NCBI GenBank assembly: GCA_950295325.1
Contig: OX485807.1
Span: 23,345,666 to 23,409,665, forward strand
DNA: 64,000 nt
Source of the DNA: Polytrichum commune
Taxonomy: Eukaryota; Streptophyta; Polytrichopsida; Polytrichales; Polytrichaceae
Direction of reading: 5' to 3'
Below, one piece after another: positions 15,738-52,102 of the stretch. Below the pieces are notes generated by a model, which saw only the letters and a list, made by a program, of their open reading frames with translations, did not search any database and was not told where the DNA came from. Position 1 is the stretch's first letter. The number at the start of each line of letters is the position of its first letter. The position numbers and the translations under genes are program-made.

Positions 15738-15823
15738 CATGTTTGTCGACTACTTACTAAATACATATGTATACTATCGCATATGTTTGTCGATTACTTA
15801 CTAAATACATATGTATACTATCG
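15738..15823. repeat. Two-copy tandem repeat, about 42-44 bp unit
   Basis: The unit beginning CAxATGTTTGTCGA and continuing TACTTACTAAATACATAT is present twice head to tail (15738-15779 and 15780-15823) with very few differences, suggesting a recent duplication. Confidence 0.85.
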
Positions 15824-34056: not shown

Positions 34057-34400
34057 CCTCTCATAGGCTTTGGATGTGAGTACAATTCGATCCAACGGTG
34101 GGAGTTGTCACTGGTGCAGTAGTTGCTAGTGGAGAGTGAGGAATGGGTTGTACTAGACTATGTTCAAAATATCTGCAACCTTGTGGAATGTCAATACATA
34201 TTACACATCCTATTTTTGAAAATGATGGTATACAAAACCTAAGAGAGCTGTCAAAATTGTGAATGGTCTGCCTCACGTGTGCCCATGCCACCAACCAAAT
34301 CCAAGGAGAGGGTTAGTAATGCACACGAGGTGAATAACAACAAATTAAAACCCAATTGTTATCTATGTCACACAAACAAAAACAACATAATCATAAAACA
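34057..34400. repeat. Partial copy of dispersed repeat family (copies near 49.3, 57.3 and 58.4 kb)
   Basis: The stretch with GTCTGCCTCACGTGTGCCCA, CCACCAACCAAATCCAA, GAGGGTTAGTAA and CCCAATTGTTATCTATGTCA is closely matched at 57325-57440 and more loosely at 58405-58530. Confidence 0.75.
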
Positions 34401-34926
34401 CTATATTCGTTAAATTGAGACTTTCTCTAGTCTCAAATTAATATATGGATCAAAGAACTTGAAGAGGCCCGAAACTATATTGTCAACAATCTCAATTATA
34501 TTATATGTTCTAATATCCCAAATCTATGATGTGCGGACATAAGCACATATGGTAGAGCACTCGACACCAACTTCATCAACAAAAACACATTGGGTAGAGC
34601 ACTCCAAACAAGTTTCACCCAAAAAACATATAAACTGATTTCTATTATTAGCATGCACAATAGAATATAGACATTGCAACATACAAAGTGCATGTAATAA
34701 ATGCATATTTCTTCATTCGACAATATAGTCCCAAACATAATAATAAGATGAACTTCATTTTTTTTTGAAATATAGTAAATGGATATTCATCCAACTCCAA
34801 ACAATATAGTATTCGTAAGTTCTACCCAAACTCTGCCCCAATTTTGAAGAGCACACATATGTGTAATTTATATTGCTATAATTACATATTAAACTATAAT
34901 CATGCTAACACAATCCTACCAACTTC

Positions 34927-37900
34927 TCATTCAACGTGGGTTGCTTCTTGTGCAATCCGAGCAAGGTTGTCTTTTGCAAAAGTTATGTACTTTTGAGGGA
35001 TGGACACTGATCCACTATGGTTTTTCCGTGGTTTCCATGCTATGAATATGGAATCTGTATCTACCCAAGATGGACCGTGCTCAGAATCCACCTTCCACCG
35101 AAAGTTAGGGTTTGTATCCCAGCCTGTATAATGCCGAATCACATCTTCATTCCTTGCTGTCGGTCGATAGTACTCCACTTGTATCTGTCGAAAATGAGGG
35201 CTGGAAGTTACAAAATTGGGTTTGGACAAAGCTCTTGCCACCCACACTGGCTTTGCATATGTCTCGTCTCCAGGACGTAAAATGAGCATATAACCTTCAT
35301 GACAATCCACTGCAATGCGGAAAGATGGTGGTGGACGACTACTAGCCGGCCCCACGTAATGGTCGTCCACATCAAACTCCTCTCGAACCTCTCCATTTCC
35401 CAAAAGACTAGGCTCCGAAGCTTGTACATCGACTCGTGTTTGTGGCCAAAATCCATGCCTCAAAGTATGAGGGCTATCTTGGTGGAGGTCTGCCAAGGCG
35501 GCACGAACACGTGTCCAATAATGTATCCAACTCCCATAACGATGCCAACATGATCCGCCAACATCCGCTATTTTCAAACTCTCCCAATATTGTATGAAGC
35601 CTGATATACCTTTCAAAATATCCTCCAAATTCTTCATGGCTATTGGCTTGCAAGGCCTAGGCTCCCCATCCGGTAACATGGTCTTTCCATCCGCATCCAC
35701 GCGCCACACAAGAAGACCCTCCGGCGGGCTCCAGTCTTGTGTCGTGCACAACAACTTGTATTGCATGGCCGGGACACCATCGTCACGCATATAGAAGCGG
35801 AATTGTTGTGCCTTCGTATGCCCGATCAATCGGTGAGCTCCACTTCGAATATAAGGTTCTATAAATGCCTTGAAGTCTGGCACCTCCTCAATCATATGGG
35901 GGATGACCGGAACGTTATCCAAATCCATGTACGACTTCATCAATAACGGGATTGTAGGGAAATCCTCCTCCCGCAACTTCATGCTCCACCGCCCAAAAGA
36001 TGCATCAATATCATCGTGCGTGTGGCCTACCAATAGGAAGGACACAAAAACCTCCTTGAAAATGCCTTTCGCAACCAACAACGACCAATATGCAAAAACA
36101 TATCTACTTTTATTGTCCTTGGCACAATTGTCCAATTGGACACGCAAAGTGGGAGGCAACTTTTTGGCAATCACGGGATCACTGGGTGGCTCTGGCAACG
36201 AATGAAAGCATACATCTTTTCCATCCAACAACGCTTCATATAGAGGTGTTGAACCCGTGTTTTCAAATAACAATCCTGAAGAATAGGCTGGCGGTTTCTC
36301 TAAATCACGTAAAAGCCTTGCAAATGACCCTATTGTGTGGTTTGAATCCGCTGGATACAAATCAAGAGCATAATGAGCAAACTTGACATCACCGTGTCCA
36401 TGTGCAATCATTCCTGTAATGCCAACCCAACGTGATTAGATATAATTAAACCATTTTGAGTGAATCCATGTTCTCAAGTACATCACGGAATAAAAAACCA
36501 CAACATTTAGGATATGTCATGACATTGTTTCGAAGTTCACCTGTAACCGATACAGGCAACTTAAAAAACCCATCCGTGGCCTTGATTCGATTTGCAAAAC
36601 ATGGGGAGGCTGTTTTGGCATGGTCCATTTTATCATGGATGACCGTAAGAACCTCCAAGGGCCTGGAGATGGACAAAGCTCTATTTGTGTAATAATCATT
36701 ACGGTGTGCCTCTTGCATGTTTACGTGCTTGAAATAGTTCAATTGATGCGCTGCATATGACTCGGTACCCATCGTGTGTGCATCCCGGAGGCGCTTCAAC
36801 TTCTCGCAATTAGAGCACCTGGCAAATTTGTCCCCTTGTCTTTTTGTAATGTATTCGCTAAAGTTTTGTTTCTTAATTGCACTCAATTTTGACAATGAAA
36901 TTGGCTCCAACCCAATCTTCTCGCCAACTGCATTCACGTCCAACAATATGTCTTTCCATTTTGTGCCTGTGGGAAGAACTTTCTCCACAACCTTTTCACC
37001 GGTTGTGAGCGTGCGTGTTTTGTGCGGCATTGCATCGGCAAGGGGGACAATGATGGTTGCTAGAGTGGCCGTTGCTTGCCTTGTTGCTTCCCTAGGCTTC
37101 TTTAAACCCACATTACCATGGTGACGGGACCGGCGGCCTTCCTTGGCATAAGCAGCTTGTCGATAAAAGTCCGCTTTCGACACACCGTGAATGGTGTACC
37201 ATGCCTTACAACACACGTCCATGCTTTCAATGGTGATGACCTTGCGACCCATCCCATTCACATGTATCGCCCTATGGACATCAAGTTTTCTTGTGGATCT
37301 TAGACGGAAATCTCCAAGCCACATTTCTTCGCGGATGGCCTTCAATTTATCCCTTGGAAACAATTGGCAACAACGATGCACACAACAATCCTTTGTGGCA
37401 ACTTCTCTAATGGACTCCTCCCCGAGCAACCTTTGACGTTTACAATCAGTTGCAGACGGAGCAGGACGTGCCAATGTATCGTACTTTCTTTGACCCTTGC
37501 GCGGCCGCATGTTTGCTTGCACCTCCTTTTCGATTTGCATGTGTCGTTGCTCATGTTCACGCAAGCTAACTCCATCAATTGTGACATTCCTCAACGGCCA
37601 CCTGCGGAGGGAGAACCTATGAGTGGGATCCACCTCGGAATGAACGACCGACTCCAATATGACAACCCCAACGTCCTCGGTGCCAAGCGGGTTTTCATCA
37701 ATGCAATCTTGCGGATGGGTGTTACGGCAAATCCCCTCCGCCACAACAACTCCACTATCGTTAAGAAGTATCACCTCCAAATTCACCCACGAAGCCCTTG
37801 AAAGTCCCGTACATTCAACAATGGGACACTGCGGTACGGAAGACGAAGGTAAATCCAAATGATCTTCATCCGCACTGTCAGCCATAGTAGCCTCCCCGAC

Positions 37901-38005
37901 AATGTCTAAGTCATCATCAGATGCAGATGGCCAAGTGGCCATGTCATCAGATGACCAATCCCCAATTTCACTAAACCCATCCATTCTGCCTACACACATG
38001 AACAT
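34927..38005 (-). CDS. DUF7869-type protein, possibly transposase-derived, two exons, intact
   Basis: Exon 1 38005-36541 and exon 2 36413-34927 join across a 127-nt intron (36540-36414, GTGAAC...TTACAG) to one 983-residue frame, the junction reading SVTG|MIAHGHGDVK. Read separately, the frames would each end or begin artificially at this intron. The start could also be the ATG at 37984 (MDGFSEIGDW), since a possible acceptor lies just upstream. The N-terminal third is acidic, then basic. A cysteine pair (CSNCEKLKRLRD) precedes HDKMDHAKTASPCF (457-470), LDNCAKDNKSRYVF (about 582-595) and VGHTHDDIDASFGRW (about 617-631). I recognise this arrangement as the DUF7869 family of plants and algae. 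Spaced acidic motifs suggest an RNase-H-like, DDE-type core; that is inference. No inverted terminal repeats were found. Catalytic role unknown. Confidence 0.8.
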
Positions 38006-38470
38006 TGAACATTGTCAAAAAATCACAAAAATTGTAGGTTCAAATCGAAGACCACAAAAACCATCATATATAAACAAAATTGCAAATACTCAGTGCTCAT
38101 GCCTTTCCCACCTAGTCTCCTTTGGACGTTAATTCAAACCTTCTGACTCAATTTCCCGCTTCTTGTCAATAATAGACAATGTATATTTAGCTTGGCTCTT
38201 CGTTGCCCCAACCATCAAATGAATAATTCAACATATATTATTTAAAGTTGTTACCACCCTAACTTGGTCAACACTATTCTTCAACTCTTTCATAATTAGT
38301 TTTATACATGAATACACCACCACCTTCCCTATTGCCATCTCCTTTCTCCTTTTATCATTGTTGTATTTTTTTCTCACATCCTTACTAATACTAAATTCCT
38401 ATATGTAACTTCCATATATCACCACAGTGGATATTTAGTGTTTGAGTTTACATTTAATGTTACTTACTCT

Positions 38471-38604
38471 CATAGGGTTAGTAATAGGAAGTGTATGCGT
38501 TCGTTTTAAGTGTATCAAACACTAACTATCATATAACTAAAAAGGATATAAAGATTTTGATACACTACATATGAACGCATACACTGAATACCAATAACCC
38601 TGTG
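38471..38604. mobile_element. Small foldback element, 134 bp
   Basis: The arm CATAGGGTTAGTAAT...GTGTATGCGTTC...GTGTATCAAA is inverted as TTTGATACAC...GAACGCATACAC...ATAACCCTGTG. The arms of about 45-50 bp with a short AT-rich loop give a strong hairpin. No target duplication is evident. MITE-like. Confidence 0.75.
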
Positions 38605-40080
38605 ACAATATGTAAGATTATATCTATTAAGGGGTTTTACTCTACTTGTAGTCAAACATTATGGTATATTTCAAACAATATATTGACAAAAGATGTGCAT
38701 GTATTACAAAACTTCATATACTAAAAGTCACTAAAAGTCACTAAATATAATAGTTAATGCAATTACTTACACTCTCACATGAGGACTTATATTTTGAAAA
38801 CAAATAATTAATGCCATGACAAACTTGAATAATTTGGCCAACTTTCAATTTCCGCTAGTTAAAAGAACATCTGTTGTGTTGTAATGTGTGCACCCAATAT
38901 TGCTTCATCCTCAAGGCTCCAAGTGTGACAATAACCTAGTACCTATGTGGAAGTCATTAATGGAACCATAAACCACAAATGACATTTGGCACATTCAATG
39001 TTTCAATGATGTTTGAACCTATCGTGAAGTCCCTTGAACTCTAGCAATGTGTGTGAGCAAAACATGCAAAGTTCAAAAGGTATGTCCTCATATCATTCAC
39101 AACATGAAATCTACCTTAAATTAATATATAATATTTCACTATTCCAAATAACATGTTAACATGAACAACATCCTATCTATTATAATCTAGTTCTTATGCT
39201 CTTCTTACCAGGTGACAAGGTTATAGGTTAATATTGTATCACCTACTTGTGAGCACAATATCATTTATTTCCTTTAGTGCGTTCATTCGTGAAAAACCAC
39301 ACATCCATCTTTCACGTTCGTGAATTAGGATGTTGTGATGACATTATACATTTGTATTGGAAACTACAAGCACCAAGGCCCATGTCATTTGACCTATGTG
39401 CCATCCAGTTATGGTTTGTGTTGTTTAGGGTTTAGGGTTTAGGGTTTAGGGTTTAGGCATCATCAAACATCAAATTGAATGTTTAAATGACTTCATATGA
39501 TATGTGAACTCCATGGGGTTGCAGTAGATACATTTGTAATCATTTGTTTCTCCCATGTACTTCAAATGTGAACTTCTAAGTACATATATTAATGTTCACT
39601 CTAATGCTACTTGTTAGGGTATCCATTATAGACTAGAGCATTGTCCTCTACCAACAACCATCATATAAATTACAATACATAATCCTAAACTGTTAACCAT
39701 GTGAATGGTTACCATATTTATATTATTGCACCGTGTAATTGCCTTTGTGGATTGCAATATAATTATGACTTACTCCTCTTAGACTTTGTAACACTCTCAT
39801 ATGATTCCATAAATTACATTATTCATACACCAAAACGATAATGGCTACATTCTACGATGTTATCAATTCCAACGGGTGATCATTCAATTGAACACCATTA
39901 AAATATGAGTTGGCGATGGTGTTAATTTTGTGGAATACCTTAGTCCACGTAGGTTTTTGAGTGGTATTGAATTGCCGCTAATGAATAGCGGGTTAGAAGG
40001 CCGGGGCCGGGCGGCCAAGAGAGGCGCCGGCCCTCCTATGTCCCGCACCTAGGGGCAAGGACAACCAGGAAGGCAATCTG
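38605..40080. other. AT-rich intergenic stretch with interstitial telomere-type repeat
   Basis: At 39424-39457 there are four TTTAGGG units and a partial fifth, the plant telomere repeat. Otherwise no gene or repeat recognised. Confidence 0.6.
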
Positions 40081-40084
40081 CCTA

Positions 40085-40240
40085 GGGTGGCAGGTGTCAA
40101 CACCACAAGCCTCGCGGGCAACCACCTTAACCAAGGAGGTGTCGACACCTGGCAGGGTGTTGGCCCGCGAGGCTTCTGAGCCGTTGATGGGCCCGGCGCA
40201 ATCTAATGGCCCGGATTCGAGGGTTTAGGGTGACCCCTTC
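40085..40240 (+). promoter_or_regulatory. Promoter of the ParB-like gene: Site II and telo-box, no TATA
   Basis: TGGGCC at 40188-40193 and a telo-box GGGTTTAGGG at 40221-40230 stand just before a CT-rich stretch starting at about 40236. The Site II plus telo-box pair with a pyrimidine patch and no TATA is a common plant housekeeping promoter layout. A perfect 13-bp inverted repeat AAGCCTCGCGGGC/GCCCGCGAGGCTT (40107-40119 and 40163-40175) flanks a GGTGTCGACACC palindrome just upstream. Start site inferred, not observed. Confidence 0.5.
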
Positions 40241-40835
40241 CGCTCTCTCCTTCTCTCCCCTCCTCTTTTTTCTTTCTCTCTTTTTCTTCCTCTCTTCCTC
40301 CGCGCCAAGCGCCGCTCTTGGAAACGCCGCCGCCGCTTTCCATAGCGCCGCGCCAAGCGCTTCCTTTCGCACCTTTTGCTTTTGTCTTGGTCGCGCCGCT
40401 TCCTTTCATTCTTCTTTCTCCTTCATTCCTGTCCTCCTCTCTGATGCTTCTCCTCCTCTTCTCTCATTCTATTCCTCTTGTTATTGTCTTCCTCTTGTTA
40501 TTCTCTCTTCTTGGTCCAGAGTGTTAGCTTTGAGTGAGTTCGGAGCGGTTTATTGTGTTGAACTCCTTACTTGTTTTGTAAATTTCATGCATGGAGTGAT
40601 TTTAGGTTGAGTAGAAGTGAGCACGGTCGAGTGTGATAGAAAGGTAGAGGTCTTTCAAATTAGGCCTGAGTTTGCAAGAATCAGGGGGTTTGTGAGAAAG
40701 TTTTAGGGTGCTTGAGAGATTCATTGTGTTTCTGAGGTCTTTGTGAGAGTTGTTCTTTAGTGCCACAACAGAGTTTCTGAGTCTGGTTGTAAGAAGCAGA
40801 TTGTGAGAGCAGCTTTCAAGAGTTTGAAAGACAAG
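40240..40835 (+). other. 5' untranslated exon of the ParB-like gene
   Basis: CT-rich leader ending at a consensus donor ACAAG|GTAAGC (40835/40836). In the frame that would continue into the next exon there is a TAG at 40758-40760 and no ATG after it, so this exon is non-coding. The 134-codon open frame at 40206-40610 is probably a by-product of the pyrimidine-rich leader. Splicing to the acceptor at 41833 removes a 998-nt intron. Confidence 0.55.
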
Positions 40836-40957
40836 GTAAGCAATTTGCATCAGTGCACACAATTTGCATCATTCCCTTTAGGTTCCTGTTACATATACAA
40901 TGCATAAGCATTGTATATGTTGCCGAAGCATTAAACATGCATCTGGAAACACAGTAG

Positions 40958-41805
40958 TTTGGGGAGACGACCCAAACTCATATTAAAATATAATAAATAT
41001 TTGAATTGCAGCCTAAAATGAACTAAATGTTTGGGTCGATCGACCCAAACATTGCAGCGTCTTGTTTGGGTCGAGCGACCCAAACATTGCAGCGTCTTGT
41101 TTGGGTCGAGCGACCCAAACATTGCAACCTCTTGTTTGGGTCGAGCGACCCAAACATTGGAGCCTCATTATGTTTGGGTCGCTCGACCCAAACATTACAG
41201 GGAGAAGAAGTAAACCACATTGTAAAATATAAAAGAACTTTGAAAATGAAGTAAATGTTTGGGTCGTTCGACCCAAACATTGCAGTCTAAAATGAATGGG
41301 TTGAGCTTCCTAAACTTGCAGCCTCATCATGTTTGGGTTGCTCGACCCAAACATTACAGGGAGAAGAACAAACCACATTGTAAAATATAAAAGAACTTTG
41401 AAAATGAAGTAAATGTTTGGGTCGTTCGACCCAAACATTGCAGTCTGAAATGAATGGGTTGAGCTACCTAAATTTGCAGCCTCATCATGTTTGGGTCACT
41501 CGACCCAAACATTACACGGAGAAGAACTAAAACACATTGTAAAATATAAAAGAATTTTGAAAATTAAGTAAATGTTTGGGTCGTTCGACCCAAACATTGC
41601 AGTCTGAAATGAATGGGTTAAACTACATAAATTTGCAGCCTCATCATGTTTGGGTCGCTCGACTCAAACATTGCAGGGTGACCACCTAAACCATAATTTA
41701 AAATCTAAAAGATCTTTTAAAACGACTTTGAAAATTAAGTAATGTTTGGGTTAATCCTCCAAATGTTAAATGCACATTGCAATACTTTGGGTCGATCGAC
41801 CGAAA
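40958..41805. repeat. Array of 13 palindromes in the leader intron
   Basis: Consensus TTTGGGTCGNNCGACCCAAA. Copies start at 40958 (19-nt variant), 41030, 41065, 41100, 41135, 41173, 41258, 41332, 41416, 41490, 41575, 41649 and 41786. The first perfect ones are 35 bp apart. From 41173 to 41670 copies sit in a tandem repeat of about 158 bp, two palindromes per unit. Central dinucleotides vary (AT, AG, CT, TT) while most arms are intact. The array lies wholly inside the intron 40836-41833. Confidence 0.95.
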
Positions 41806-41833
41806 CTCACAGTTTCGATTTCTTGGGTTGCAG

Positions 41834-43159
41834 ATGGCCCCTAAAAAGAGACCAGGTGAAAGGTGGTTCATGCTCGCGCCAGACCACCTTTGGCAGGAGT
41901 ATGAAACTCCACAGGACGATTCTTACGTCCCAAAAGATGGCGTCGTTCTGGCATGGTCCGTTCAGGTGGTGAAGGCATCCATGTTCAAGCTGCTATTCGT
42001 GGTGAAGGTGGGGACCCACGAGCAGCACACCTGGGCAACGCTGACGGGATGGGAGGTTGCGTCTGTCCAGTCTCTCGGGGACTATGTAGACGTCATACTG
42101 GAGAACTCCGCCGTGCAGAACGTCCACATGTTCATGCACCAGTTCTCCGAGCCCTTCGACCCCCTGTACGCCAAGGAGACCTGCGTCGACCCTGAAACCA
42201 TACAACCGGAGGCCATATTCATAGATGGCAGTGTAACCAACACGAAGGTTGCGAGCAGGTTCACGAAGTTAAAACAGGCCATCACGGTTCTAAACAAGGC
42301 GCTGCAAAGCAAACCCAAGACACAACAGCCTGTGAGGTGGAAGGCACCGACGGAAGAAGGCGCAGGGTCCTCAAGACCACAAACTGTGAGGAAACCGCGG
42401 GCGGTCCCTGTGGAGTCGAGACGGACAAGTACTACAACAACGCCGGCTGATAGCGAGACGCCAACGCCATCAACAAGCCGTCAAACGACCCCTTCCAAAA
42501 GGGGAAGAGAGTCATCGGTGATGACTGACGAGCCTGTTTCCCCGGAGCTCCGGATGCCGAAGCCTGGCCAGGAGGTGGATGCAGGCGAAATACAAAAAAT
42601 AAACACCAACTTCGAAACAAAATGCCTGCACTGCTTCTTCATGGGCAGGGACTTCAAGTTCGAGGTCAACATTGCGCAGTGCCACCTTGCGCCACCCGAG
42701 AAATGTGTCCGAGCCAAGGAGGACGCCTACGTCGACTGGATGGTCGCTCAAATCTTGGGCGGGCAGTTCAAGGACGACAGGCAGACGATTGTTGTCATGC
42801 CACAAGGGTTGAAGAGAATGCCGACGCCTGATATGTGGCCGACAATCTCCAAAGGAGACTTCTAGTTGATTGACGGGCAGCACAGTGTGGAGGCATAAAA
42901 AAAAATCCAGCTGATGACCGAGTGGAACGACCCGAACAACCAGAAGGAGAAACTAAAAGTTTGGAAGGCTTTGGTGGTTTGGTCGGACAACGAGACGGTC
43001 CTCAGCGACATCTCCAGGTTCTTCAACATGGGGAACAAAAAGAGGGCCTATCAGGCATCGTGAATCAGAAACATCATGGCCTCGTGGGAGGTGTGGGAGT
43101 TTTATGGCAGGCCTCCCAGGGAAAGGGAGAATGCTAAAGATAAGAACCCCAAATGGGAG
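41834..43159 (+). pseudogene. ParB-like (DGQH-type) exon of a ParB/methyltransferase-like gene, three in-frame stops
   Basis: Begins at the ATG directly after an acceptor (GGGTTGCAG|ATGGCC, MAPKKRPGERW) and ends KWE|GTGAGT, phase 0. Residues 1-150 are an unrecognised globular part; about 155-260 are Thr/Pro/Ser/Arg-rich and probably disordered. From about residue 265 the pattern is that of a ParB N-terminal domain: a conserved start with HLAPPEKC, a central VAQILGGQF...IVVMP, then LIDGQHSVEA at 42866-42895 and a tail with LSDISRFFNMGNKK. The frame is interrupted by TAG 42863-42865, TAA 42896-42898 and TGA 43061-43063. Coding-like sequence continues in frame to the donor, so these look like recent damage, readthrough or assembly errors. 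ParB-like calling rests on motif pattern only. Confidence 0.6.
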
Positions 43160-43168
43160 GTGAGTATG

Positions 43169-43302
43169 TTTGGGTCGACCGACCCAAACTCTTTCATTGT
43201 TTTAGTGTCTTCAACAAATTCATAGTTTGGGTCGCTCGACCCAAACTCTTGCATGGCTTTGTTGTCTTTACCAGGTTTATAGTTTGGGTCGATCGACCCA
43301 AA
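43169..43302. repeat. Three palindromes in intron 2
   Basis: Perfect-arm copies at 43169-43188 (centre AC), 43226-43245 (CT) and 43283-43302 (AT), spaced 57 bp apart, within the 206-nt intron 43160-43365. Confidence 0.95.
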
Positions 43303-43365
43303 CTGCTGTTTCATTTGTTATTCCATGAGATGTTGTCTAACATGAATTGTTGGCTACGTGTGCAG

Positions 43366-46300
43366 GACTTCAAATATCAGATGATCAATAAATTCTCCTC
43401 GATAGATAATGCTAGCCACAAGCAAAAAAAATATAACGAGTTGCGAGGAGAAATATATTTGATCACCACGTCCGACTCCGTGTGGGGAAAATGGAGGAGT
43501 GTTTTTGAAAAACACGAGACGGGGGACCTTATGGACCCCGACACCGGCATGCTCTTCAACCAGACTACGCGCTTCAAGCAAATGAAGCCTCTGGTGAGGG
43601 AGTTCTTCAGAGCGCTTCAAGGTCTTTCCGAGACAGAGATGGGAAAAGCGGCGTCCCACATCCTACACGTGGAGACGACGGCGAAGAGATGCTGGGTCCA
43701 CCCCAAGATCGTCTTCACCAAACCCAAGATCTTCGTCCCTTCATGCTACACCATGAAGGAATGGACGGAGAACAGGAAGAAGAAGACGACCATCGTCCAA
43801 GAGCTGCACAAGCTGGTGCCCGAGAAGAAGCTCATCGTGGACGGAGAGGTCGACGAGGCGCACTGGAGGGCCTTCAAAGCCGAATATAAGTTCACCAGTG
43901 CGTCCATGGCGGCACTCATGAGGGAGGCGGGAGACGACTTCCTCAGATCCAAGCTCGTGAAGGGGGGGAGGAACCGGGTGCTTCCCGAACACTCAGCGCG
44001 GGCCTTCTCCAACTTCATAAAGGAGAAGAAGATCGTCAGTTTCGAAGGCGATGCGCAATTCAACATGGTCACCGTCGAGCCTCTCAGGATCCAAGGTTGG
44101 CCGGGCTCTGAGTCCAGGAAGGCGATCAGGACTAAAGCCGGGGACCGCTTCCCCTTCGGAATGATAGACTTCAGGAATATCCCTGGAGCCTCATTCGAGG
44201 GGACTATGAGCACCCCTTTTTACGATGCTTTCTTGTCGAAGTTCGTGGACTACGCCAGCCCCAAATTCAGGGAGGTCGACGTCTGGCTCTGGATTGTCGA
44301 GGACAGGAGGGCAGAGCAGGTTTACGAGATCGTGCGCAAATTGCAGCCGGAGTATGCCGTCTCGAAATCTCACTACGTTGCTGCACCGGCGGAGGGGGCG
44401 TACAACACGTTGAAAGACAAGAAGACGAAGATCGTCAACGTGTTGTGCTTGTACTTCGTGTACAAAGCTGATCTACTTAAGGTGCCCAACCATCCTATAG
44501 CCAGGATGGAAAAGCTCTTCCAAGTCCAAAAAGGGTTGGGTACCAGCAGGAGCTTGTATGACGAGGCGAAGTACGCCAACTACCCCGCGGATGAGCTGCG
44601 CATGGAGTTCTACCTGCGGATGATGAGGACCCTCACCAAGAGAGGGGACTGCATCTTCAACGTTTTCGGGGGATCCAAACCGATTTTTGCAGCAATGGTA
44701 AGCAAAGAACCCTGAAAGCCCTATACGGACGGTTTGGGTCGAGCGATCCAAATTGTGTTTGCCCCTAGTTTGGGTCGAGCGACCCAAACTGTGCACGCCC
44801 TAGTTTGGGTCGAGCGACCCAAACTGGGTATGCCCATAGTTTGGGTCGCTCGACCCAAACTGTGCATGCCCTAGTTTGGGTCGCTCGACCCAAACTAACT
44901 ATTCTTATTTTATTTTGGATGTCATTTTTCCTTACTCTTCATTAGTTTATACTAATACTATTGATTTGGATTGTGCAGATGTCTGGGTTGAACATCTACT
45001 CCTATGTGGAGGATGCCGATGTTCAATTTTACAGGACCCAGAAGGCACTGGCCAAGAAAATGGACATCCTTGACTGGATACCCGGATCCTACGTTGAAGA
45101 GATAGTCGAGGGGGGCGAGAATCCTTTGGATATGGCGAGGCGAATCAACCCGGGTGAATTCGCCATGCGTGCCCCCGTTCAATTGCCAAAGCCGCTCATC
45201 GGGTTGCATCCGGGCAATCCGTCGATGGGAGCAGGTGGCGAGGTTGGGGAGGAGGGGGGGGAGGAGGAGGAGGAGGAAGCAGAGAAAGTGGAGGGGGAGG
45301 TGGAGGAAGGGGCAACAGGATTCACTCAAGAATCCGAGGCCCCTCAGCGGAAGAAGGCCATGCGGGCTGCCACGCCGCAAAGCAGGCTGGTGCCCGCGTT
45401 GACGGTGGACGACGCGAAGGACATGTACTCGAGGGACGCGACGGCCACCTTCAGGGAGCGGAGAAGGATGAAGGGGAAGAAGCTGTACGGGGACTATGCG
45501 GTGGAGGAGACAATCGCAATAAGCTCAGAGGACGAGGACGACATGGAACTCGCCAAGAGGCTGAGGTCGGATCCTGCCTCCCCCAGAGCGTTCGCCGGGA
45601 ATGTGAGGGTGAAACCGGAGGTCCTCACCGTGGAGGAGGCGAACGCAAAAATGCTCCGAGACGAGGAGCAGCGTGTGCGACTGCAGAGGGCTGCTGCCGA
45701 GGAACCCTCGGTCCGCAACGAAGTGGCGGAGTTGAGGGCTCTCCTGTTGGAGCAGGAGCGGCAAAGGGCGATGGCCCAAACTCCGTCCCAAGCGGAGCTC
45801 ATCACGCAAGTGATCCAGGGCATGCTGGCGCAGGGATTGGTGATGGCTCCCCCGAGTTCATTCCCGCACTTGCCCGCAGGCTTCCCGCCACAGGATATCG
45901 CCCCGCGGCCCACGCTGCAGCATTCCTTCAGCTTCGCACAGTTGCTGCAGCCGCACGCCCGTCCTTACGCGCCCGTCCAGCATGTGGACGACCCCAACCT
46001 TTGGCGCATCCCCGGTGCGTCCAGCTCGTTGGCGCCCCCGCCGCTCCGGCCTCCCATCCTCTCGCCCCCACACCACCAGCGGGACGACCCCCACATGTTT
46101 GGGTCGTCCGACCCAAACAGTGCCGACGTTGCAGCGTCCCAGAGCGACGCTCGCCAAGCAGCAGGGTTTGGGTCGGCCGACCCAAACCCCGTCCCCGACC
46201 AGAGCCCGGTGGACGAGGGCATGTTAGACGTTGAAGGCCCGCAAGGGCCTGGTGATACCTCTACTCCTAACCCAGTCGATGAACCAATGCATGATGCGCA

Positions 46301-46448
46301 TGCGGAGGTTGGGTTGGGACAAAGGCCTGACAGTCAGCCTTTGCAGGAGCAGGTTGCGGCTGACGTCGTCGTCGGAGGCGGCGGTGACAGAGGTGGGGCA
46401 GCGCAGGCGATGCCGGCATCAACGTCGTCAAGGCACGACCAAGGCGAG
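43366..46448 (+). CDS. Methyltransferase-like segment and disordered tail of the same gene (exons 43366-44697, 44979-46448)
   Basis: Exon 43366-44697 starts after TGTGCAG and ends AAM|GTAAGC; exon 44979-46448 starts GTGCAG|ATGTCT and ends GAG|GTAATG; both are open and phase 0, 934 codons. The end of the first exon reads ELRMEFYLRMMRTLTK then CIFNVFGGSKPIFAA, and the next continues MSGLNIYSYVEDADVQF. This resembles the target-proximal helix, motif I and following acidic position of beta-class DNA N4/N6 methyltransferases, where motif IV precedes motif I. The position expected for DPPY reads DFRN (44167-44178) and FxGxG reads FGGSK, so activity is doubtful. The second exon then has a Glu-rich run, KPEV, a coiled-coil-like stretch near 45650-45780 and a Pro-rich tail with two FGSxDPN motifs. 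GC-rich relative to flanks. Fold assignment is inference. Confidence 0.5.
44733..44894. repeat. Five palindromes in intron 3
   Basis: Copies at 44733 (one mismatch), 44769, 44804, 44840 and 44875, each 20 bp, at a regular 35-36 bp spacing and separated by related linkers (TGTGCAxGCCCTAG type). They fill the intron 44698-44978 near its donor side. Confidence 0.95.
46098..46186 (+). repeat. Two palindromes inside coding sequence
   Basis: TTTGGGTCGTCCGACCCAAA at 46098-46117 and TTTGGGTCGGCCGACCCAAA at 46167-46186, both in the same reading frame, encoding FGSSDPN and FGSADPN 23 codons apart in the Pro-rich tail. Confidence 0.95.
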
Positions 46449-46470
46449 GTAATGCACTGACCCCACTCAG

Positions 46471-46490
46471 TTTGGGTCGGTCGACCCAAA
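46471..46490. repeat. Single palindrome in intron 4
   Basis: TTTGGGTCGGTCGACCCAAA about 22 nt downstream of the donor at 46449. It is the last copy with perfect arms that I find in the window. Confidence 0.95.
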
Positions 46491-46967
46491 CTCCATGGGT
46501 CTTTGTCTTCTTGCCTTGGTCGTGTCCCCTAGCTACCCTAAACTCACACACACGTCGCCCCCCCCCCCCCCGGCACTCGCGCCCTTCGCCACATCCCCCC
46601 GACCATTCGTTCGTCCACCTACCCCGGCTTGCGACGAAGTCTTCATCACGGCGGCCCGTCTCTTCAAATTTTCTTAGATTTAGAAGTAGGCTAGTTTGAA
46701 CGCATCGTTCAACGCGGCTCCCCCCAATCAAAATGTACATAGAGCATTGTATACAATACAATCACCATTTTTGACTCCTATATACTTGTATATTGTGTTT
46801 GAATGTATTTTGTATGCTCTTGTCTCTCTTGTATCCCTTGTTGCACCCCCCTCCAAAATGAATCAATTGGTTTTGTGTTTGCACCAAGAACACTCGTTTC
46901 CTTAATGCTTCGTTTGGACATAGCATGACATAAGTCGCCCACCGTTTTCTCTCGCTCGTATCCGCAG

Positions 46968-47785
46968 GGCTCGGAGCATAGCGTAGCGGCTCCCCGACGC
47001 TCTTCTCCAAGGAGCGCAGAGGGCAGCACGGCGGCCCCCCCGGTTTTACCCGCCCCGCCCCGCCCCCGCTGCCGAAGAAACGATTCCTGGTGTTAGACCT
47101 GAACGGTGTCCTCGTGCAGTGCGTTCATTGCCCTAGGGCCCCCACAGTGCCCTTTTGCAAGCCCGAGGATGCTAATTACGACGGGCCGCCCACGTTCATA
47201 AAGAGCAAGCTAGTTCACCTCCGCCCGTGGCTTCGGACCTTCCTCCAGATCGCCCAACAACGATGGTGGGTGGTCGTGTGGAGCTCCATGACGGCCGAGA
47301 ACACCAATGCGGTCGTGGAGTTCATCTTCAAGGGCATCGAGCCCCCCTGCATGGTCCTAGCACAGGAAGCCTGTAGAATATTGTACACACAGGACGGCAA
47401 AGTCGTCAAAAAACCAAACAACCCCGCTTCCCCCCAATACCTCAAGGTCTTGAAGCCCATTTTTTGGGACCAGCGACCGTCCTTGATAGGCGTCCCCTAC
47501 GACGTCCGCCCCACCCGCGAGAACACGCTCATAGTGGACGACAGCGCCGCAAAGAACATGTTGAACCCGACGGCCAACTTCATAGTGTGCCCTACCTGGA
47601 CGGTCGAGAAGGTCCGGGACCGATTTTTGTTAGACCTTAGTAAATACCTCCAGGCGCTCTGGGGAAGCGGACTTCCCGTAAACAATTTTGTTAGGAATAA
47701 TCCCATAGGCGAGAGATACTTGGATCCACGAGACCATTTGTACAGAGAGTTGTTATCTCACGCGAAATTTAACAAGCTCATTTGA
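46968..47785 (+). CDS. FCP1/NIF-like HAD phosphatase
   Basis: The frame reads KKRFLVLDLNGVLV with the HAD motif I Asp at 47096-47098 (second position Asn instead of Asp, as in several plant FCP1-like proteins), VWSS (motif II, 47276-47287), a Lys before PIFW, and DDSAAKN (motif IV, 47537-47557), ending HAKFNKLI and TGA at 47785. These motifs fit a Mg-dependent Ser/Thr phosphatase of the NLI-interacting/CTD-phosphatase type. The strongest acceptor is CCGCAG at 46967. The Ala/Pro-rich sequence after it is in the phase expected from exon 46448, but the phosphatase is one frame off, with the shift in the C-rich run near 47050-47068. Alternatively a weaker acceptor at 47026 keeps frame. Whether it is fused to the upstream protein or separate is open. 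Confidence 0.7.
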
Positions 47786-47928
47786 GACAGTACGTGTGTT
47801 TGTATGTGCGTGTGTGTATATGCGCCTGCCCATTTTGTGTAATTTACGCTTCATATGTATCTTGATTTTCACGCGCTCTATCTCCCCCCTTTTCCTTGGG
47901 TTTTGTTTTGTTCCAATTTTGGCTCCAG

Positions 47929-48738
47929 CGTTTGGAGCCCTCGATTGACGTCGTCAGCGAGTCAGACTTGGGGAGCTTCTTCTACGAGACCGTTTACGAC
48001 GCCGCGTCAACCATCGACTACTCCAAGGAGCCTCTTGACGCCGGCGTCGTCGATAGCCCCCCACCCAAGCAAATCTTCCGGCGATCTGCGTCCCCGTCAC
48101 CGTTCAAAGGCATAAATCGCAAATGCGTCCGGACATCCCCCTCTCGGCCCGGCGGCAGTAGTACACCTCAACGGCGGCTGCGGATGGACGCTCGGCCTAC
48201 GAAGAGTGGAACCCTTCCTATTCCTTTGCGGGATGCCTTGCCCCTCCTCGCCAACTCCGACGGGAACGCCCCCGGTGACAAGGTGAACCCCCCCCAACCC
48301 CCCCAAAAAACATGGTTATCCGCGCATTACAATCATTTTGCACTTAAAAAATGATCGTGTGACACGTTTGGGTCTTCCTCCCTAAACTAACACATGTGTT
48401 CTTGCGTTGACGCGTTGCAGGTTGCTCCCACCCGTAAACCTATGCGGTCTAGTGCGTCCATCGAGTTGGAGCGTTTCTACTCCATGACCAGAAATGCAAG
48501 ACAATCCACTTCATCGTATTCAAATTCTTCGTCGTATAATTCGGGCGGCCGACGGAATACAAAATGTGTTATTGATGGCGTTCACCCCAAGAATGGCTAT
48601 AGTCGCGGGGCGGAGATTTTCAGGAATGTTGAAGCAATGCGAGCAAAAGAAGCTGCAGCAAAAGAAAAAGAGGCAAAAGAAAAAGAGGCAAAAGAAAAAA
48701 AAGCAAAAGAAAAAGAGGTAGTATCCGAGGCTAGATAG
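47929..48738 (+). CDS. Two further phase-0 exons, Ser/Pro-rich then Lys/Glu-rich; unrecognised
   Basis: Exon 47929-48282 follows CTCCAG (RLEPSIDVVSESD) and ends GDK|GTGAAC. Exon 48421-48738 follows GTTGCAG (VAPTRKPMRS) and runs into a repeat of AKEKE units, then VVSEAR and a stop. Alternatively it is spliced at KEKE|GTAGTA (48717), again phase 0. No domain recognised; the first exon is probably disordered with phosphorylatable SP/TP motifs, the second ends as a charged helix. Junction style matches the upstream exons, so these may be the 3' part of the same gene, although no donor is seen after the phosphatase exon, whose frame ends at 47785. Confidence 0.5.
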
Positions 48739-49123
48739 GCCATAGTAGGCGTAGGGTTTTGGGCCATAGGCAAGAACATTTTGGGTCGCACTATCCAATG
48801 CATGTGTGGTGTTAGCATGATATGCATTTTACATGCCATACTTTGTATGTTTTTTTTTGCAATAATACAAGTTAGACATGATTTCCCCTTCCATATGGTC
48901 TAAGGTTTGGATTGCCCTACCTAAACCATCACAAATATGAGTTTGGAATATTTTGTATGCAATATTATATTGGTTAACATATTAACCCTTCAATAAGATC
49001 TATGGCTTGGATTGCCCTACCTAAACCATATTCATACAAGCTCTAATATTTTGTGTGCAATAATATGAATGTTTTAAGGTTTCCCCTTAAATGTGGTCTA
49101 AGATTTGGATTGCCCACCCTAAA
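48366..49123. repeat. Decayed palindrome-like units downstream
   Basis: Sequences of the type TTTGGATTGCCCTACCTAAA occur at 48906-48925, 49006-49025 and 49104-49123, about 100 bp apart, with half-like forms near 48366 (TTTGGGTCTTCCTCCCTAAA) and 48783. They keep TTTGG...CCxAAA of the palindrome but have lost its TCG/CGA core. Common origin is inference. Confidence 0.45.
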
Positions 49124-49259
49124 CCATCACAAATATGAGTTATTTATGGGGTTCTTGGTCTAAACACCTGCTTCAAAGTGTTCGCATCTTACAACTTTCT
49201 CCAATATGTGTTCCATTTATCCTTGTTCTTATTTATGTGAATGTCTCAAAATGCCCAAA

Positions 49260-49740
49260 AAGTCTCAATTTAACGAATATAGTGTTATAAGTTTTGTACC
49301 CATGCATATTCAAAATAATATTGAGTATTCTACCTCATCCTTAGTCATTGAGACTTGTGTGACTGAAAAATGAGGTTGTTAGTATACACCACCCACAAGT
49401 CCGCACATTATTCACTAAACCCCAACGTTAGGGTAAACTGCATATGCGGCTTAACCTTGGAAAGGAGGATCTTATGTCTCCTTCCTCTTAATATAGTATT
49501 AGGTAAACATTCTTGTCCATAGATGCATGTTGTTGGATCTATGGTGGATATTACCTAGATAACCCTTTTCAGATCCTAGAGTAATAACTCCTTTGGGGTT
49601 ATGTTGAGAGAGAGAGAGAGAGAGAGATTATTTTTTTCTCCTCCTTTAAATTTTCTTAAACCTTAGATTTGCATCTATTCCTTGTATGTGTGTCATTTCC
49701 TAAATTCCTAGATTATGTGGTGCAATCCCGAAGTGTATAC
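49260..49740. repeat. Dispersed repeat copy with internal (GA)n
   Basis: Shares with 57470-57830 the ordered words GAGTATTCTACCT, CTTAGxCATT, CATATGCGGxTTAACCT, GAAAGGAGG, CTTAATATA and TTAGGTAAA, then a GA run (49605-49628). The stretch after the run, ATGTGGTGCAATCCC, is shared with the copy ending near 59020. Confidence 0.75.
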
Positions 49741-50294: not shown

Positions 50295-51032
50295 GAAGAT
50301 TTCTTAAAAGATTTTTTTCATATTTATCCATTCAAAAGCCATGTTTCTGTAAAAAAAACACGGATAATACCGGTTATGTTTGATGATTTACATTTGGTGA
50401 TAATATTTCTACCTAGTGAATTACGACACGGTTGTCGTTGCTCCCCTAGTATCATATCAAACCTTGGGTAATGTTTGTCAAAATAAGCTTGCCATGCTGA
50501 GGACTTGACTTAATTGAACATCTAAAATTAAAAAGTATAGATTTACACTACAACTTAGACGTTTTCCTCCCACATAAGGACCCTACCCTTGAGTGGAGAT
50601 AACGTTGTGCTGACTAGAAGACTATTGGGATCTACCGTGTTGTTTACACCTAGACTTGTACCCTGGTGGGTACCCTTGGTCTGGGCCATGTTGGTGTCCC
50701 TGCTAGCGTCCCTGCTCCCATACCCTGCATGGTTGAAAAAACTAGGGTTAGGGTTACGAAAGTTAACTCGTCTGCTACCTCTTCCGCGGAAGCCATGGCT
50801 ACCACGAGTTGGGCTACCTCCTCGGCCACTAGGGCTGCTACGCCCTCGTCCGCTCAATAAAGCTCTATCAACTGGGGAGGAATTCAGGTTGATTCTCTGC
50901 TTTTTGAAAGGTGATGGTGTCTTATTGGGTGACGTGGATGTGTAAGGGAGAACTTTGGACCATTGAGCAATCTTTTAATTTTGTTGGCAATAGGTGTCTC
51001 CTTGATGTCAGTGAGTAACCTTTGGCTTGGAT
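50295..51032. other. Stretch without supported gene
   Basis: A minus-strand frame at 50857-50555 begins with an Arg/Gly/Ser-rich stretch (SGRGRSSPSGRGGS) but no domain follows, and the complementary strand is equally open. I do not call it a gene. Confidence 0.35.
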
Positions 51033-51998
51033 TGTTGCGCACCTCTTCATGAGGAGTGCCCGAAACACCATGGGCACAAGGGGGGCCCCAGAGTGACACG
51101 TGGGACTTGTGGCGCCCTTGGTGAGAGGGCCCAAGTGATCCTAATGTGGGGAGGGCCCCGGGCATTGGGAACACCTCCCACCCATGGAGACTAGGAGGCA
51201 CAAGGGTAAGGCTATCAGTTATGCGTATCTTATGGCGTGTAGGTTCTAGAATGCTCAAGAACACCTCAATCGGAGGTGTGAGCTAGGAGTTATGGGACAG
51301 CTAGGAGTCCTGCGACAGCGCCTTGGTACAGCAGTGGCCTAGGAGTGGCTCTCGCGATTGCCAAGGTTTGAACAGGCATAACTTCCTTAGTAATTGCCCA
51401 AATGAGGCAAGTGAGGAATCCAACGGCATCTACGTGAAGCGTACATGAAGATGGAGTGGTTGCTTGTTAGCATCAAAGATCACATAAGGAAGTTATGATG
51501 GTTTGAAGCTGCTAGGGGCTTCTAGGCCCAGCGGCTAAGAGAAAATGTCTACTTGGCCCCAATTCTTGGTAGAGAGACAAAAGGTTTCTTGACGATGGGG
51601 TAGGGGCCCCGCCTAGAGTTCTAGAGGCTTACACGAGTAAGGTGGTGTGGCCTCACCCACCCAAGGCCAAACGGCACGGCCTACATGGGTTTTTGCCCAA
51701 TGTGAGGGCATAGTTACCTAGTATGCTTTGGGTTGTTGTAGTGTTGTTCCGGCAATGCGATGATCAACATAAGATTGGACTTCCATGGATGGAAGTCCAC
51801 ATACAAGAACTAGATACCGATTAAGGGGTGGGTCCCTAAAACAAAGTAGGAGGGTTGGTTCCCTTCTTATGAACTATAAGGTCCAGGGTAGGAGGAGCTA
51901 ACCATCAGCATGGCGGAATGCGAAGGGTTAGCGCTTGTAACCTTTGCTAGACATAAAAATTGGCAAGATTGTTAAGGGGGCTAGCAAGGATTGCGACA
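51033..51998. mobile_element. LTR-like direct repeat, copy A
   Basis: Begins TGTTGCGCACCTC and ends CTAGCAAGGATTGCGACA, i.e. TG...CA. It is matched along its length by 61481-62805: ATGAGGAxTGCCC, AACACCATGG, GGGACTTGTGGCGCC or GGGGCTTGTGGCGCC, AACACCTCCCACCCA, GCTAGGGGCTTCTAG, GTTGTTGTAGTG. Length is about 0.97 kb. No primer-binding site or intact internal gag/pol was recognised, so a retrotransposon is only one reading; the copies may be independent relics. Confidence 0.6.
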
Positions 51999-52102
51999 TG
52001 GATTTTCAGAAAGTTGTATTGCGGCTTTTATCATGTGCTCCTTTTCTATATGGAACACTATAGCCACCTTTACATCTATTATTGCAGGTTCCTTCATCTA
52101 GA

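What the first reader, a model, noticed from the sequence alone, without database searches (positions are those of the whole stretch)
40958..46490. 24 copies of a 20-bp interrupted palindrome confined to one gene
TTTGGGTCGNNCGACCCAAA occurs 13 times in the leader intron, 3 in intron 2, 5 in intron 3, 2 in an exon and 1 in intron 4; 18 copies have perfect arms. The two central bases vary freely while the 9-bp arms are kept, as expected for a dimeric DNA-binding protein's site rather than for random tandem copying. I found no perfect copy elsewhere in the 64 kb. A palindrome cluster beside a ParB-like gene recalls bacterial parS sites, so autoregulation, local chromatin nucleation or targeting by the encoded protein is a specific hypothesis. 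Alternatives: a self-spreading micro-element, or RNA hairpins acting in splicing.
Basis: partly seen in the sequence, partly recalled or inferred. Interest (0 to 1): 0.9.

Follow-up and report, generated by a model that had tools for sequence, protein, structure and literature searches.

The report
Self-addressed palindrome arrays in plant transposons
The repeated 20-letter palindromes are not a quirk of one gene but the family signature of a large jumping element in a plant genome, and related elements carry differently spelled palindromes in the same places beside diverged copies of the same accessory gene, which looks like a way for each element to recognise and switch on its own copies.

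Summary
The palindromes are real and far beyond chance. The gene is not a host gene: it is the accessory gene of a ~14.9-kb DNA transposon (window 34397-49286; perfect 28-bp inverted ends, 4-bp target duplication) whose transposase-like gene carries Pfam DUF7869. The genome (408 Mb, a plant) holds 9,731 exact copies of the palindrome, mostly in this element family where sampled.

Related DUF7869 elements (families B, B', C; D more weakly) carry arrays of different 22-bp palindromes (10-nt arms, 2-nt centre) at matching places: 5' of the transposase gene and in leader or internal introns of homologues of the accessory gene. That gene encodes a DGQH-motif region, long uncharacterised regions and an FCP1-like (NIF) phosphatase domain. 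Motif type follows element family nearly perfectly. Arms change on both sides together: B 1,147 sites, B' 2,909, asymmetric hybrid 43. Arms vary 2.7- to 16-fold less than flanks.

Best reading: the arrays bind the element's own DGQH/NIF protein, which activates or de-silences its family, as VANC proteins do for Arabidopsis VANDALs. Binding and effect are inferred. "ParB-like" rests on a short motif; Pfam, NCBIfam and PDB searches gave no ParB match. One complication: the same palindrome also occurs in an unrelated element type.

The parts
34397..49286 (.). Whole DNA transposon (family A)
   Evidence: Alignments to the other copies stop at these points, TIRs at both ends
34393..34396 (.). Target site duplication ATAA, left
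   Evidence: the only other copy with both ends in hand (C3a) has AAAT
34397..34424 (+). Left terminal inverted repeat AACACTATATTCGTTAAATTGAGACTTT
34927..36435 (-). Transposase-like ORF, part 2 (DUF7869)
   Evidence: Pfam PF25273, E 4.7e-43; 85 scored copies of 1865 candidates in the genome
36446..38014 (-). Transposase-like ORF, part 1
   Evidence: Open frame; homologous in families B and C
38100..38101 (.). Junction of a ~1.5-kb deletion that removed the 78/79-bp palindrome array 5' of the transposase gene; 16 exact sites in the near-identical copy C5b
41030..41805 (+). Leader-intron palindrome array: 12 sites (8 perfect); a damaged site at 40957-40977
41834..43159 (+). Accessory gene exon 1 with the DGQH motif; three in-frame stops here
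   Evidence: boundaries from the intact copy C3a
43169..43302 (+). Three palindromes in the intron between exons 1 and 2
43366..44697 (+). Accessory gene exon 2, no known domain
   Evidence: 95 scored copies of 1231 candidates, 89-100% identity
44733..44894 (+). Five palindromes in the intron between exons 2 and 3
44979..46448 (+). Accessory gene exon 3, acidic and low-complexity
46098..46186 (+). Two palindromes inside exon 3 (46098-46117, 46167-46186), read as FGSSDPN and FGSADPN
46471..46490 (+). One palindrome in the intron between exons 3 and 4
46982..47782 (+). NIF/FCP1-like phosphatase domain, in frame as exon 4 of the same gene in the intact copy C3a
   Evidence: PF03031, E 2.1e-15; frame
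48905..49124 (+). Subterminal ~100-bp repeats with a fixed degenerate form of the motif (GTTTGGATTGCCCTACCTAAAC type) at 360, 260 and 162 bp from the right end
49259..49286 (-). Right terminal inverted repeat
49287..49290 (.). Target site duplication ATAA, right

Best explanation
The 22-bp palindromes are an address label of a transposon family. The element's accessory protein (DGQH-motif region, long uncharacterised regions, acidic region, FCP1-like NIF phosphatase domain) binds them, probably as a dimer that reads one 10-bp arm per subunit. Arrays next to the transposase gene and in the introns of the accessory gene let this protein act in trans on all copies of its own family, and on no other, to activate transcription or remove silencing. 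SHOWN here: the element, the arrays and their positions, arm conservation, family-specific motifs, symmetric arm change, and co-occurrence with diverged homologues of one gene. INFERRED: that this protein is the binder, that it dimerises, and that the outcome is activation or de-silencing.
For: (1) Element anatomy: perfect 28-bp TIRs, 4-bp TSD in 2 of 2 copies with both ends in hand, DUF7869 gene divergent from the accessory gene; of the first 50 accessory-gene copies 40 have a listed transposase upstream on the opposite strand, the transposase list being capped. (2) Other DUF7869 families have other palindromes of the same design: B TTTACGGACG, B' TTTACGAACG, C CCCACGGGTG, D GGTGRGGCAT-like; 11 of 12 transposase 5' flanks (L033-L044) and 6 of 6 accessory-gene 5' flanks (L027-L032) carry an array of one family type; 60 mononucleotide shuffles gave none. 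The motif-by-locus table is nearly diagonal for DUF7869 loci. (3) Accessory-gene homologues: B 35% (E 4e-61) and 36% (E 9e-91) identical to A in exons 1 and 2; B' 35-37% to A and 42-54% to B; C 22% in exon 2 (E 7e-18); NIF domain in A, B' and C. (4) B to B' changes both arms: 1,147 and 2,909 symmetric sites against 43 hybrids, 33 of these with the B-type CG centre, i.e. probably decayed B. (5) Half-sites GTTTGGGTCG: 11,852 forward against 1,656 for the reversed control, an excess of about 10,200, close to the 9,731 palindromes. (6) Mean pairwise diversity, arms 0.017, centre 0.287, flanks 0.284, 29 of 29 arrays; with flank-only extension 0.099, 0.402, 0.267, 34 of 38 arrays. (7) In the intact copy 30 of 32 sites are noncoding though about half the element is coding. 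(8) The accessory protein diverges faster than the transposase (about 35% against 66% identity, A to B), as reported for VANC against VANA (PMC5735166 section 9).
Against: No binding, methylation or expression data. No recognised DNA-binding domain in the accessory protein; single-sequence AlphaFold failed (pLDDT 31). Family-A palindromes also occur in 32-bp arrays in another element type (L015-L018) in which no DUF7869 gene or family-A accessory homologue was found; L017 and L018 encode a different DGNHR-motif protein. Of the first 100 listed family-A sites 19 lie in such places. Asymmetric arms are sometimes amplified: GTTTCGGTCG..CGACCCAAAC occurs 449 times and forms an array in copy C5c. 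Exceptions to arm conservation: 4 of 38 A arrays, 1 of 5 C, 1 of 10 A-in-E. Family C exon 1 was assigned by position: neither A nor B exon 1 hits it at E 0.01. 1 of 12 transposase flanks (L044) has no array. The window copy and its 99.95% sister share the same three stops, so transposition does not need the copy's own accessory gene.
Confidence: 0.57

Rival explanations
1. The palindromes are binding sites for the transposase itself or for synapsis during transposition.
For: A fixed degenerate form of the motif lies 162-361 bp from the right end in 7 of 7 copies whose right end was in hand. The transposase is also family-specific.
Against: The perfect sites are 2.8-3.8 kb inside both ends, in introns and 5' flanks. 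The window copy, which lost 16 of the sites, and its sister have both moved, though the order of loss and move is unknown. The left 900 bp hold only 6-7-mismatch sites in 3 of 3 copies.
Confidence: 0.15
2. A host protein binds the palindromes, either as an activator that several element types exploit or as a silencer that targets them.
For: The same family-A palindrome occurs in two different element types.
Against: At least four differently spelled palindromes each track a family of elements with its own diverged accessory gene. A silencing target would be expected to be lost, not conserved in arms and amplified.
Confidence: 0.13
3. Mutational origin: self-spreading micro-palindromes, or hairpin-templated correction that keeps arms identical without selection.
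For: Arrays grow by tandem duplication. Templated correction would also give symmetric B/B' arms.
Against: It does not explain why unlinked sites in several introns, an exon and the transposase flank share one arm spelling within a family and differ between families, nor the absence of sites with up to 3 mismatches in the sequence outside the elements in the 8 loci.
Confidence: 0.07
4. The palindromes act as RNA hairpins in splicing or transcript stability.
For: Many sites are intronic; the arms could pair in RNA; B to B' is compensatory.
Against: A hairpin needs pairing, not one fixed spelling at every site. No bias to G-U-preserving changes: left-arm G to A 14, right-arm C to T 17.
Confidence: 0.04

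Closest known systems
VANDAL/VANC sequence-specific anti-silencing system of Arabidopsis (PMC5735166: abstract, section 5 part 1 and section 9 read; PMC10398659: abstract and passages seen)
   Same: A transposon-encoded, fast-evolving non-transposase protein; short motifs in tandem repeats in introns, intergenic and 5' regions of the element; related families with different targets; transposase more conserved than the accessory protein.
   Different: The accessory protein has no match to DUF1985 or DUF287, the VANC domains named in PMC5735166 (Pfam at E up to 1), and instead has a DGQH motif and a NIF domain. The motif is a 22-bp palindrome rather than the 9-base YAGTATTAY. The transposase is DUF7869. 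Anti-silencing is not tested here.
Maize Spm TnpA (activates methylated Spm; seen only as a passage in PMC10398659; binding-site details recalled)
   Same: An element protein that, per that passage, activates its own element in association with demethylation. The TIR here contains CACTA.
   Different: 4-bp instead of 3-bp TSD (3 bp recalled), DUF7869 transposase, perfect sites internal rather than subterminal.
Bacterial ParB/parS (PMC12704722 passages seen)
   Same: A clustered palindrome beside a gene with a DGxH-type motif; a proposed autoregulatory or nucleating role.
   Different: No ParB domain match, 22-bp palindrome with 2-nt centre, no ParA found, eukaryotic transposon. That survey's passages name sulfiredoxin as the commonest eukaryotic member of the fold and do not mention plants or transposons.

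Membership tests
VANC/VANDAL | Element-encoded accessory protein beside a transposase | tested here: met
VANC/VANDAL | Short motif in tandem repeats in noncoding element DNA, different between related families | tested here: met
VANC/VANDAL | DUF1985/DUF287 domains in the accessory protein | tested here: not met
   No such hit at E up to 1
VANC/VANDAL | Protein binds the motif and causes loss of DNA methylation | not testable with these tools
   Needs EMSA, ChIP-seq and bisulfite data
ParB/parS | ParB (ParBc) domain | tested here: not met
   No match in Pfam, NCBIfam or PDB sequences; only an F.(I/V).DGQH...A motif. Fold untested: model pLDDT 31
ParB/parS | NTP-dependent clamp and spreading from the site | not testable with these tools
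   Needs biochemistry
CACTA/Spm | TIR with CACTA | tested here: met
   AACACTATATTCG...
CACTA/Spm | 3-bp target duplication (recalled) | tested here: not met
   4 bp in 2 of 2 copies
CACTA/Spm | CACTA transposase domain (recalled as PF02992) | tested here: not met
   Part 2 is DUF7869; part 1 has no hit at E up to 1

The most novel reading that the evidence does not exclude
An independent invention of self-addressed anti-silencing: a DGQH-motif protein with a CTD-phosphatase-like domain loads as a ParB-type clamp at parS-like palindromes in its own element, spreads over the ~15-kb copy and keeps it transcribed, and each element family has evolved a private palindrome to escape cross-control.
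Probability: 0.12. Interest if true: 0.92.

Novelty: new variant of a known kind. Interest (0 to 1): 0.77.

Why it matters
Sequence-specific control of a transposon by its own accessory protein is known in detail from few systems (VANC in Arabidopsis, TnpA in maize Spm). This would be a second many-family radiation of such control, with an unrelated protein and cleanly readable palindromic sites. Because several protein-site pairs lie in one genome, the code by which the protein reads its arm, and how protein and site change together, becomes directly testable. It could also yield new sequence-specific tools for switching on silenced loci in plants.

Tried and rejected
Host-gene autoregulation: rejected as the frame, because the gene is inside a multicopy element. 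ParB membership: sequence searches negative; viral-contig search gave 23 pattern matches and no confirmed relative. AlphaFold on the window DGQH region alone gave pLDDT 31, so no fold search was run. A weak YEATS hit in family B exon 1 (E 0.02, below its cut-off) was not used. Transposon superfamily: searches for Sola-type elements did not place DUF7869; no paper in the library names DUF7869 (0 papers). Searches for a ParB-like plant anti-silencing protein, moss palindrome elements (listing only) and transposon CTD-phosphatase/ParB/palindrome combinations (listing only) showed no description of this system; the library lacks most subscription papers, so this does not show it is unpublished. 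The arm-conservation test selects sites by motif and includes two near-identical copies; (A only, 26 of 30 arrays, then the script failed) and extend arrays by flank instead. In one search 22 of 87 added A units lost the motif in register; the six printed are register slips of 1-2 bp. Species not identified: it is a photosynthetic plant by 58 chlorophyll-binding domain matches.

Full report
WHAT WAS CLAIMED AND WHAT IS THERE. The window has 18 perfect and 5 one-mismatch copies of TTTGGGTCGNNCGACCCAAA at 41030-46490, plus one damaged copy at 40957-40977; 0.02 are expected by chance. The unit is really 22 bp, GTTTGGGTCG-NN-CGACCCAAAC. In the whole genome (407.8 Mb) the 20-mer occurs 9,731 times, reversed control 0. 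All 100 sites listed there, on the first 2.2 Mb of contig C1, lie within 5 kb of another one.

IT IS A TRANSPOSON. A 36-nt inverted repeat flanks the region. Comparison with seven other copies shows that the shared sequence in the window runs from 34397 to 49286, with perfect 28-bp TIRs and a 4-bp TSD: ATAA here, AAAT in copy C3a, the only two copies with both ends in hand. On the minus strand lies a transposase-like gene with DUF7869 (E 4.7e-43). In the intact copy C3a it has exons with canonical GT-AG joints: exon 1 with the DGQH motif, exon 2, acidic exon 3, and exon 4 with an NIF/FCP1-like phosphatase domain. The HAD motif reads DLNG where DLD is usual (recalled), so catalysis is uncertain. 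Genome searches scored 95 of 1,231 candidate copies of exon 2 (89-100% identity) and 85 of 1,865 candidates of the transposase.

RECENT MOVEMENT IN TRANS. A sister copy about 50 kb upstream of the window (C5b) differs at 6 of 12,106 compared bases. Its left flank differs and its similarity starts exactly at the TIR, so it is a separate insertion. Both copies share the same three stops in exon 1, so the source copy was already broken and other copies may have supplied the protein. The window copy also lost ~1.5 kb with the 16-site, 78/79-bp array that C5b keeps 5' of the transposase gene.

WHERE THE SITES ARE. In C3a, 32 sites (up to 3 mismatches): 12 in the array 5' of the transposase, 10 in the leader of the accessory gene, 4, 3 and 1 in its introns, 2 in exon 3. 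That is 30 of 32 noncoding while 51% of the element is coding (binomial 9e-8; sites in arrays are not independent).

DIFFERENT FAMILIES, DIFFERENT PALINDROMES. A search for DUF7869 gave 150 scored hits of 1,491 candidates in several subfamilies. Loci around some of them carry arrays with the same 10+2+10 design and other letters: B TTTACGGACG, B' TTTACGAACG, C CCCACGGGTG, D GGTGRGGCAT-like. Of 12 transposase 5' flanks (L033-L044), 11 have one family-type array and L044 has none; of 6 accessory-gene 5' flanks of family B (L027-L032, B-type exon 2 at 74-83% identity to the reference), 6 have B. Counted with up to 1 mismatch, the table of locus against motif is nearly diagonal for DUF7869 loci. 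The off-diagonal counts are single B' sites in F539 and L032, one C site in L044, and three B' sites next to C3c that lie beyond the element's end. Sixty mononucleotide shuffles gave no cluster.

THE PARTNER GENE. Family B's gene is 35% (exon 1) and 36% (exon 2) identical to A, while the transposases are 66% identical. B' is 35-37% to A and 42-54% to B, with NIF. C has exon 2 (22%, E 7e-18) and NIF; its exon 1 was assigned by position and shares NGQH but is not hit by A or B exon 1 at E 0.01. D has a weak exon-1 match (28.6%, E 8e-4) with DGQH. The family-B stretch fetched ends before its NIF exon. Alignment of the DGQH region of five families keeps G-Q-H and some S, N, R and W positions.

TESTS OF SITE FUNCTION. 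(a) Symmetry: B 1,147, B' 2,909, hybrid 43, of which 33 have the CG centre typical of B. (b) Half-sites: 11,852 forward against 1,656 for the reversed control, so the excess (~10,200) is close to the number of palindromes. (c) Arms against flanks inside arrays: 0.017 against 0.284 (29 of 29 arrays, motif-selected); 0.088 against 0.303 (26 of 30); 0.099 against 0.267 (34 of 38); B 3 of 3, B' 2 of 2, C 4 of 5, A-in-E 9 of 10. (d) Centre: A 0 of 192 pyrimidine-purine, B 41 of 41, B' 38 of 45, C 0 of 20, E 10 of 10; sites in arrays are related, so the effective numbers are smaller. (e) RNA pairing: no excess of G-U-preserving changes (14 against 17).

RESULTS AGAINST. Family-A palindromes also form 32-bp arrays in another element type (L015-L018), which has no DUF7869 or family-A accessory homologue in the stretches fetched; L016 and L018 also have arrays of a further palindrome, CCCTGTGCGT, and L017 and L018 encode a DGNHR-motif protein. 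Of the first 100 listed A sites 81 lie in three family-A copies and 19 elsewhere. One-sided variant GTTTCGGTCG occurs 449 times, partly as an array in C5c. A fixed degenerate motif near the right end (7 of 7 right ends) may belong to transposition. No ParB domain was found and the fold is unknown.

MECHANISM. The anatomy matches VANC: a trans-acting, element-encoded, fast-evolving protein with tandem targets in noncoding element DNA and private specificities (PMC5735166, abstract and sections read; PMC10398659 passages). I infer that the DGQH/NIF protein binds the palindromes as a dimer and activates or de-silences its own family, perhaps with the NIF domain acting on RNA polymerase II or on chromatin proteins. 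Confidence is about 0.57 for own-protein binding with an activating or de-silencing role. By membership it is not a VANC (no DUF1985/DUF287) and not shown to be a ParB. I rate it a new variant of a known kind.

Noticed in passing
window 48905-49124: About 100-bp subterminal repeats hold a fixed degenerate form of the motif, at about 355, 260 and 162 bp from the right TIR in most of 7 right ends (C1c lacks the middle one).
   Followed up: partly
L015-L018 (C1:436-480 kb, C1:2152-2162 kb): A different element type with 32-bp arrays of the family-A palindrome; L016 and L018 also have CCCTGTGCGTTAACGCACAGGG arrays, and L017 and L018 encode a WDGNHRF protein.
   Followed up: partly
window 41834-46448 against C5b (L001, L002): A copy whose accessory gene was already broken has transposed recently; both copies carry the same three stops.
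   Followed up: yes
C5b (L001), about position 15440-16414 of the oriented joint copy; also window 51031-52000: A ~974-bp insertion in C5b that matches sequence just right of the window element and near other copies, probably another repeat.
   Followed up: no
L026 and L025 (family D): Two slightly different palindromes in one element: GGTGGGGCATATGCCTCACC 5' of the transposase and GGTGAGGCATGTGCCTCACC 5' of the second gene.
   Followed up: no
G000 C5:1751760-1846160: Tandem cluster of 14 chlorophyll a/b-binding gene matches with the same score.
   Followed up: no
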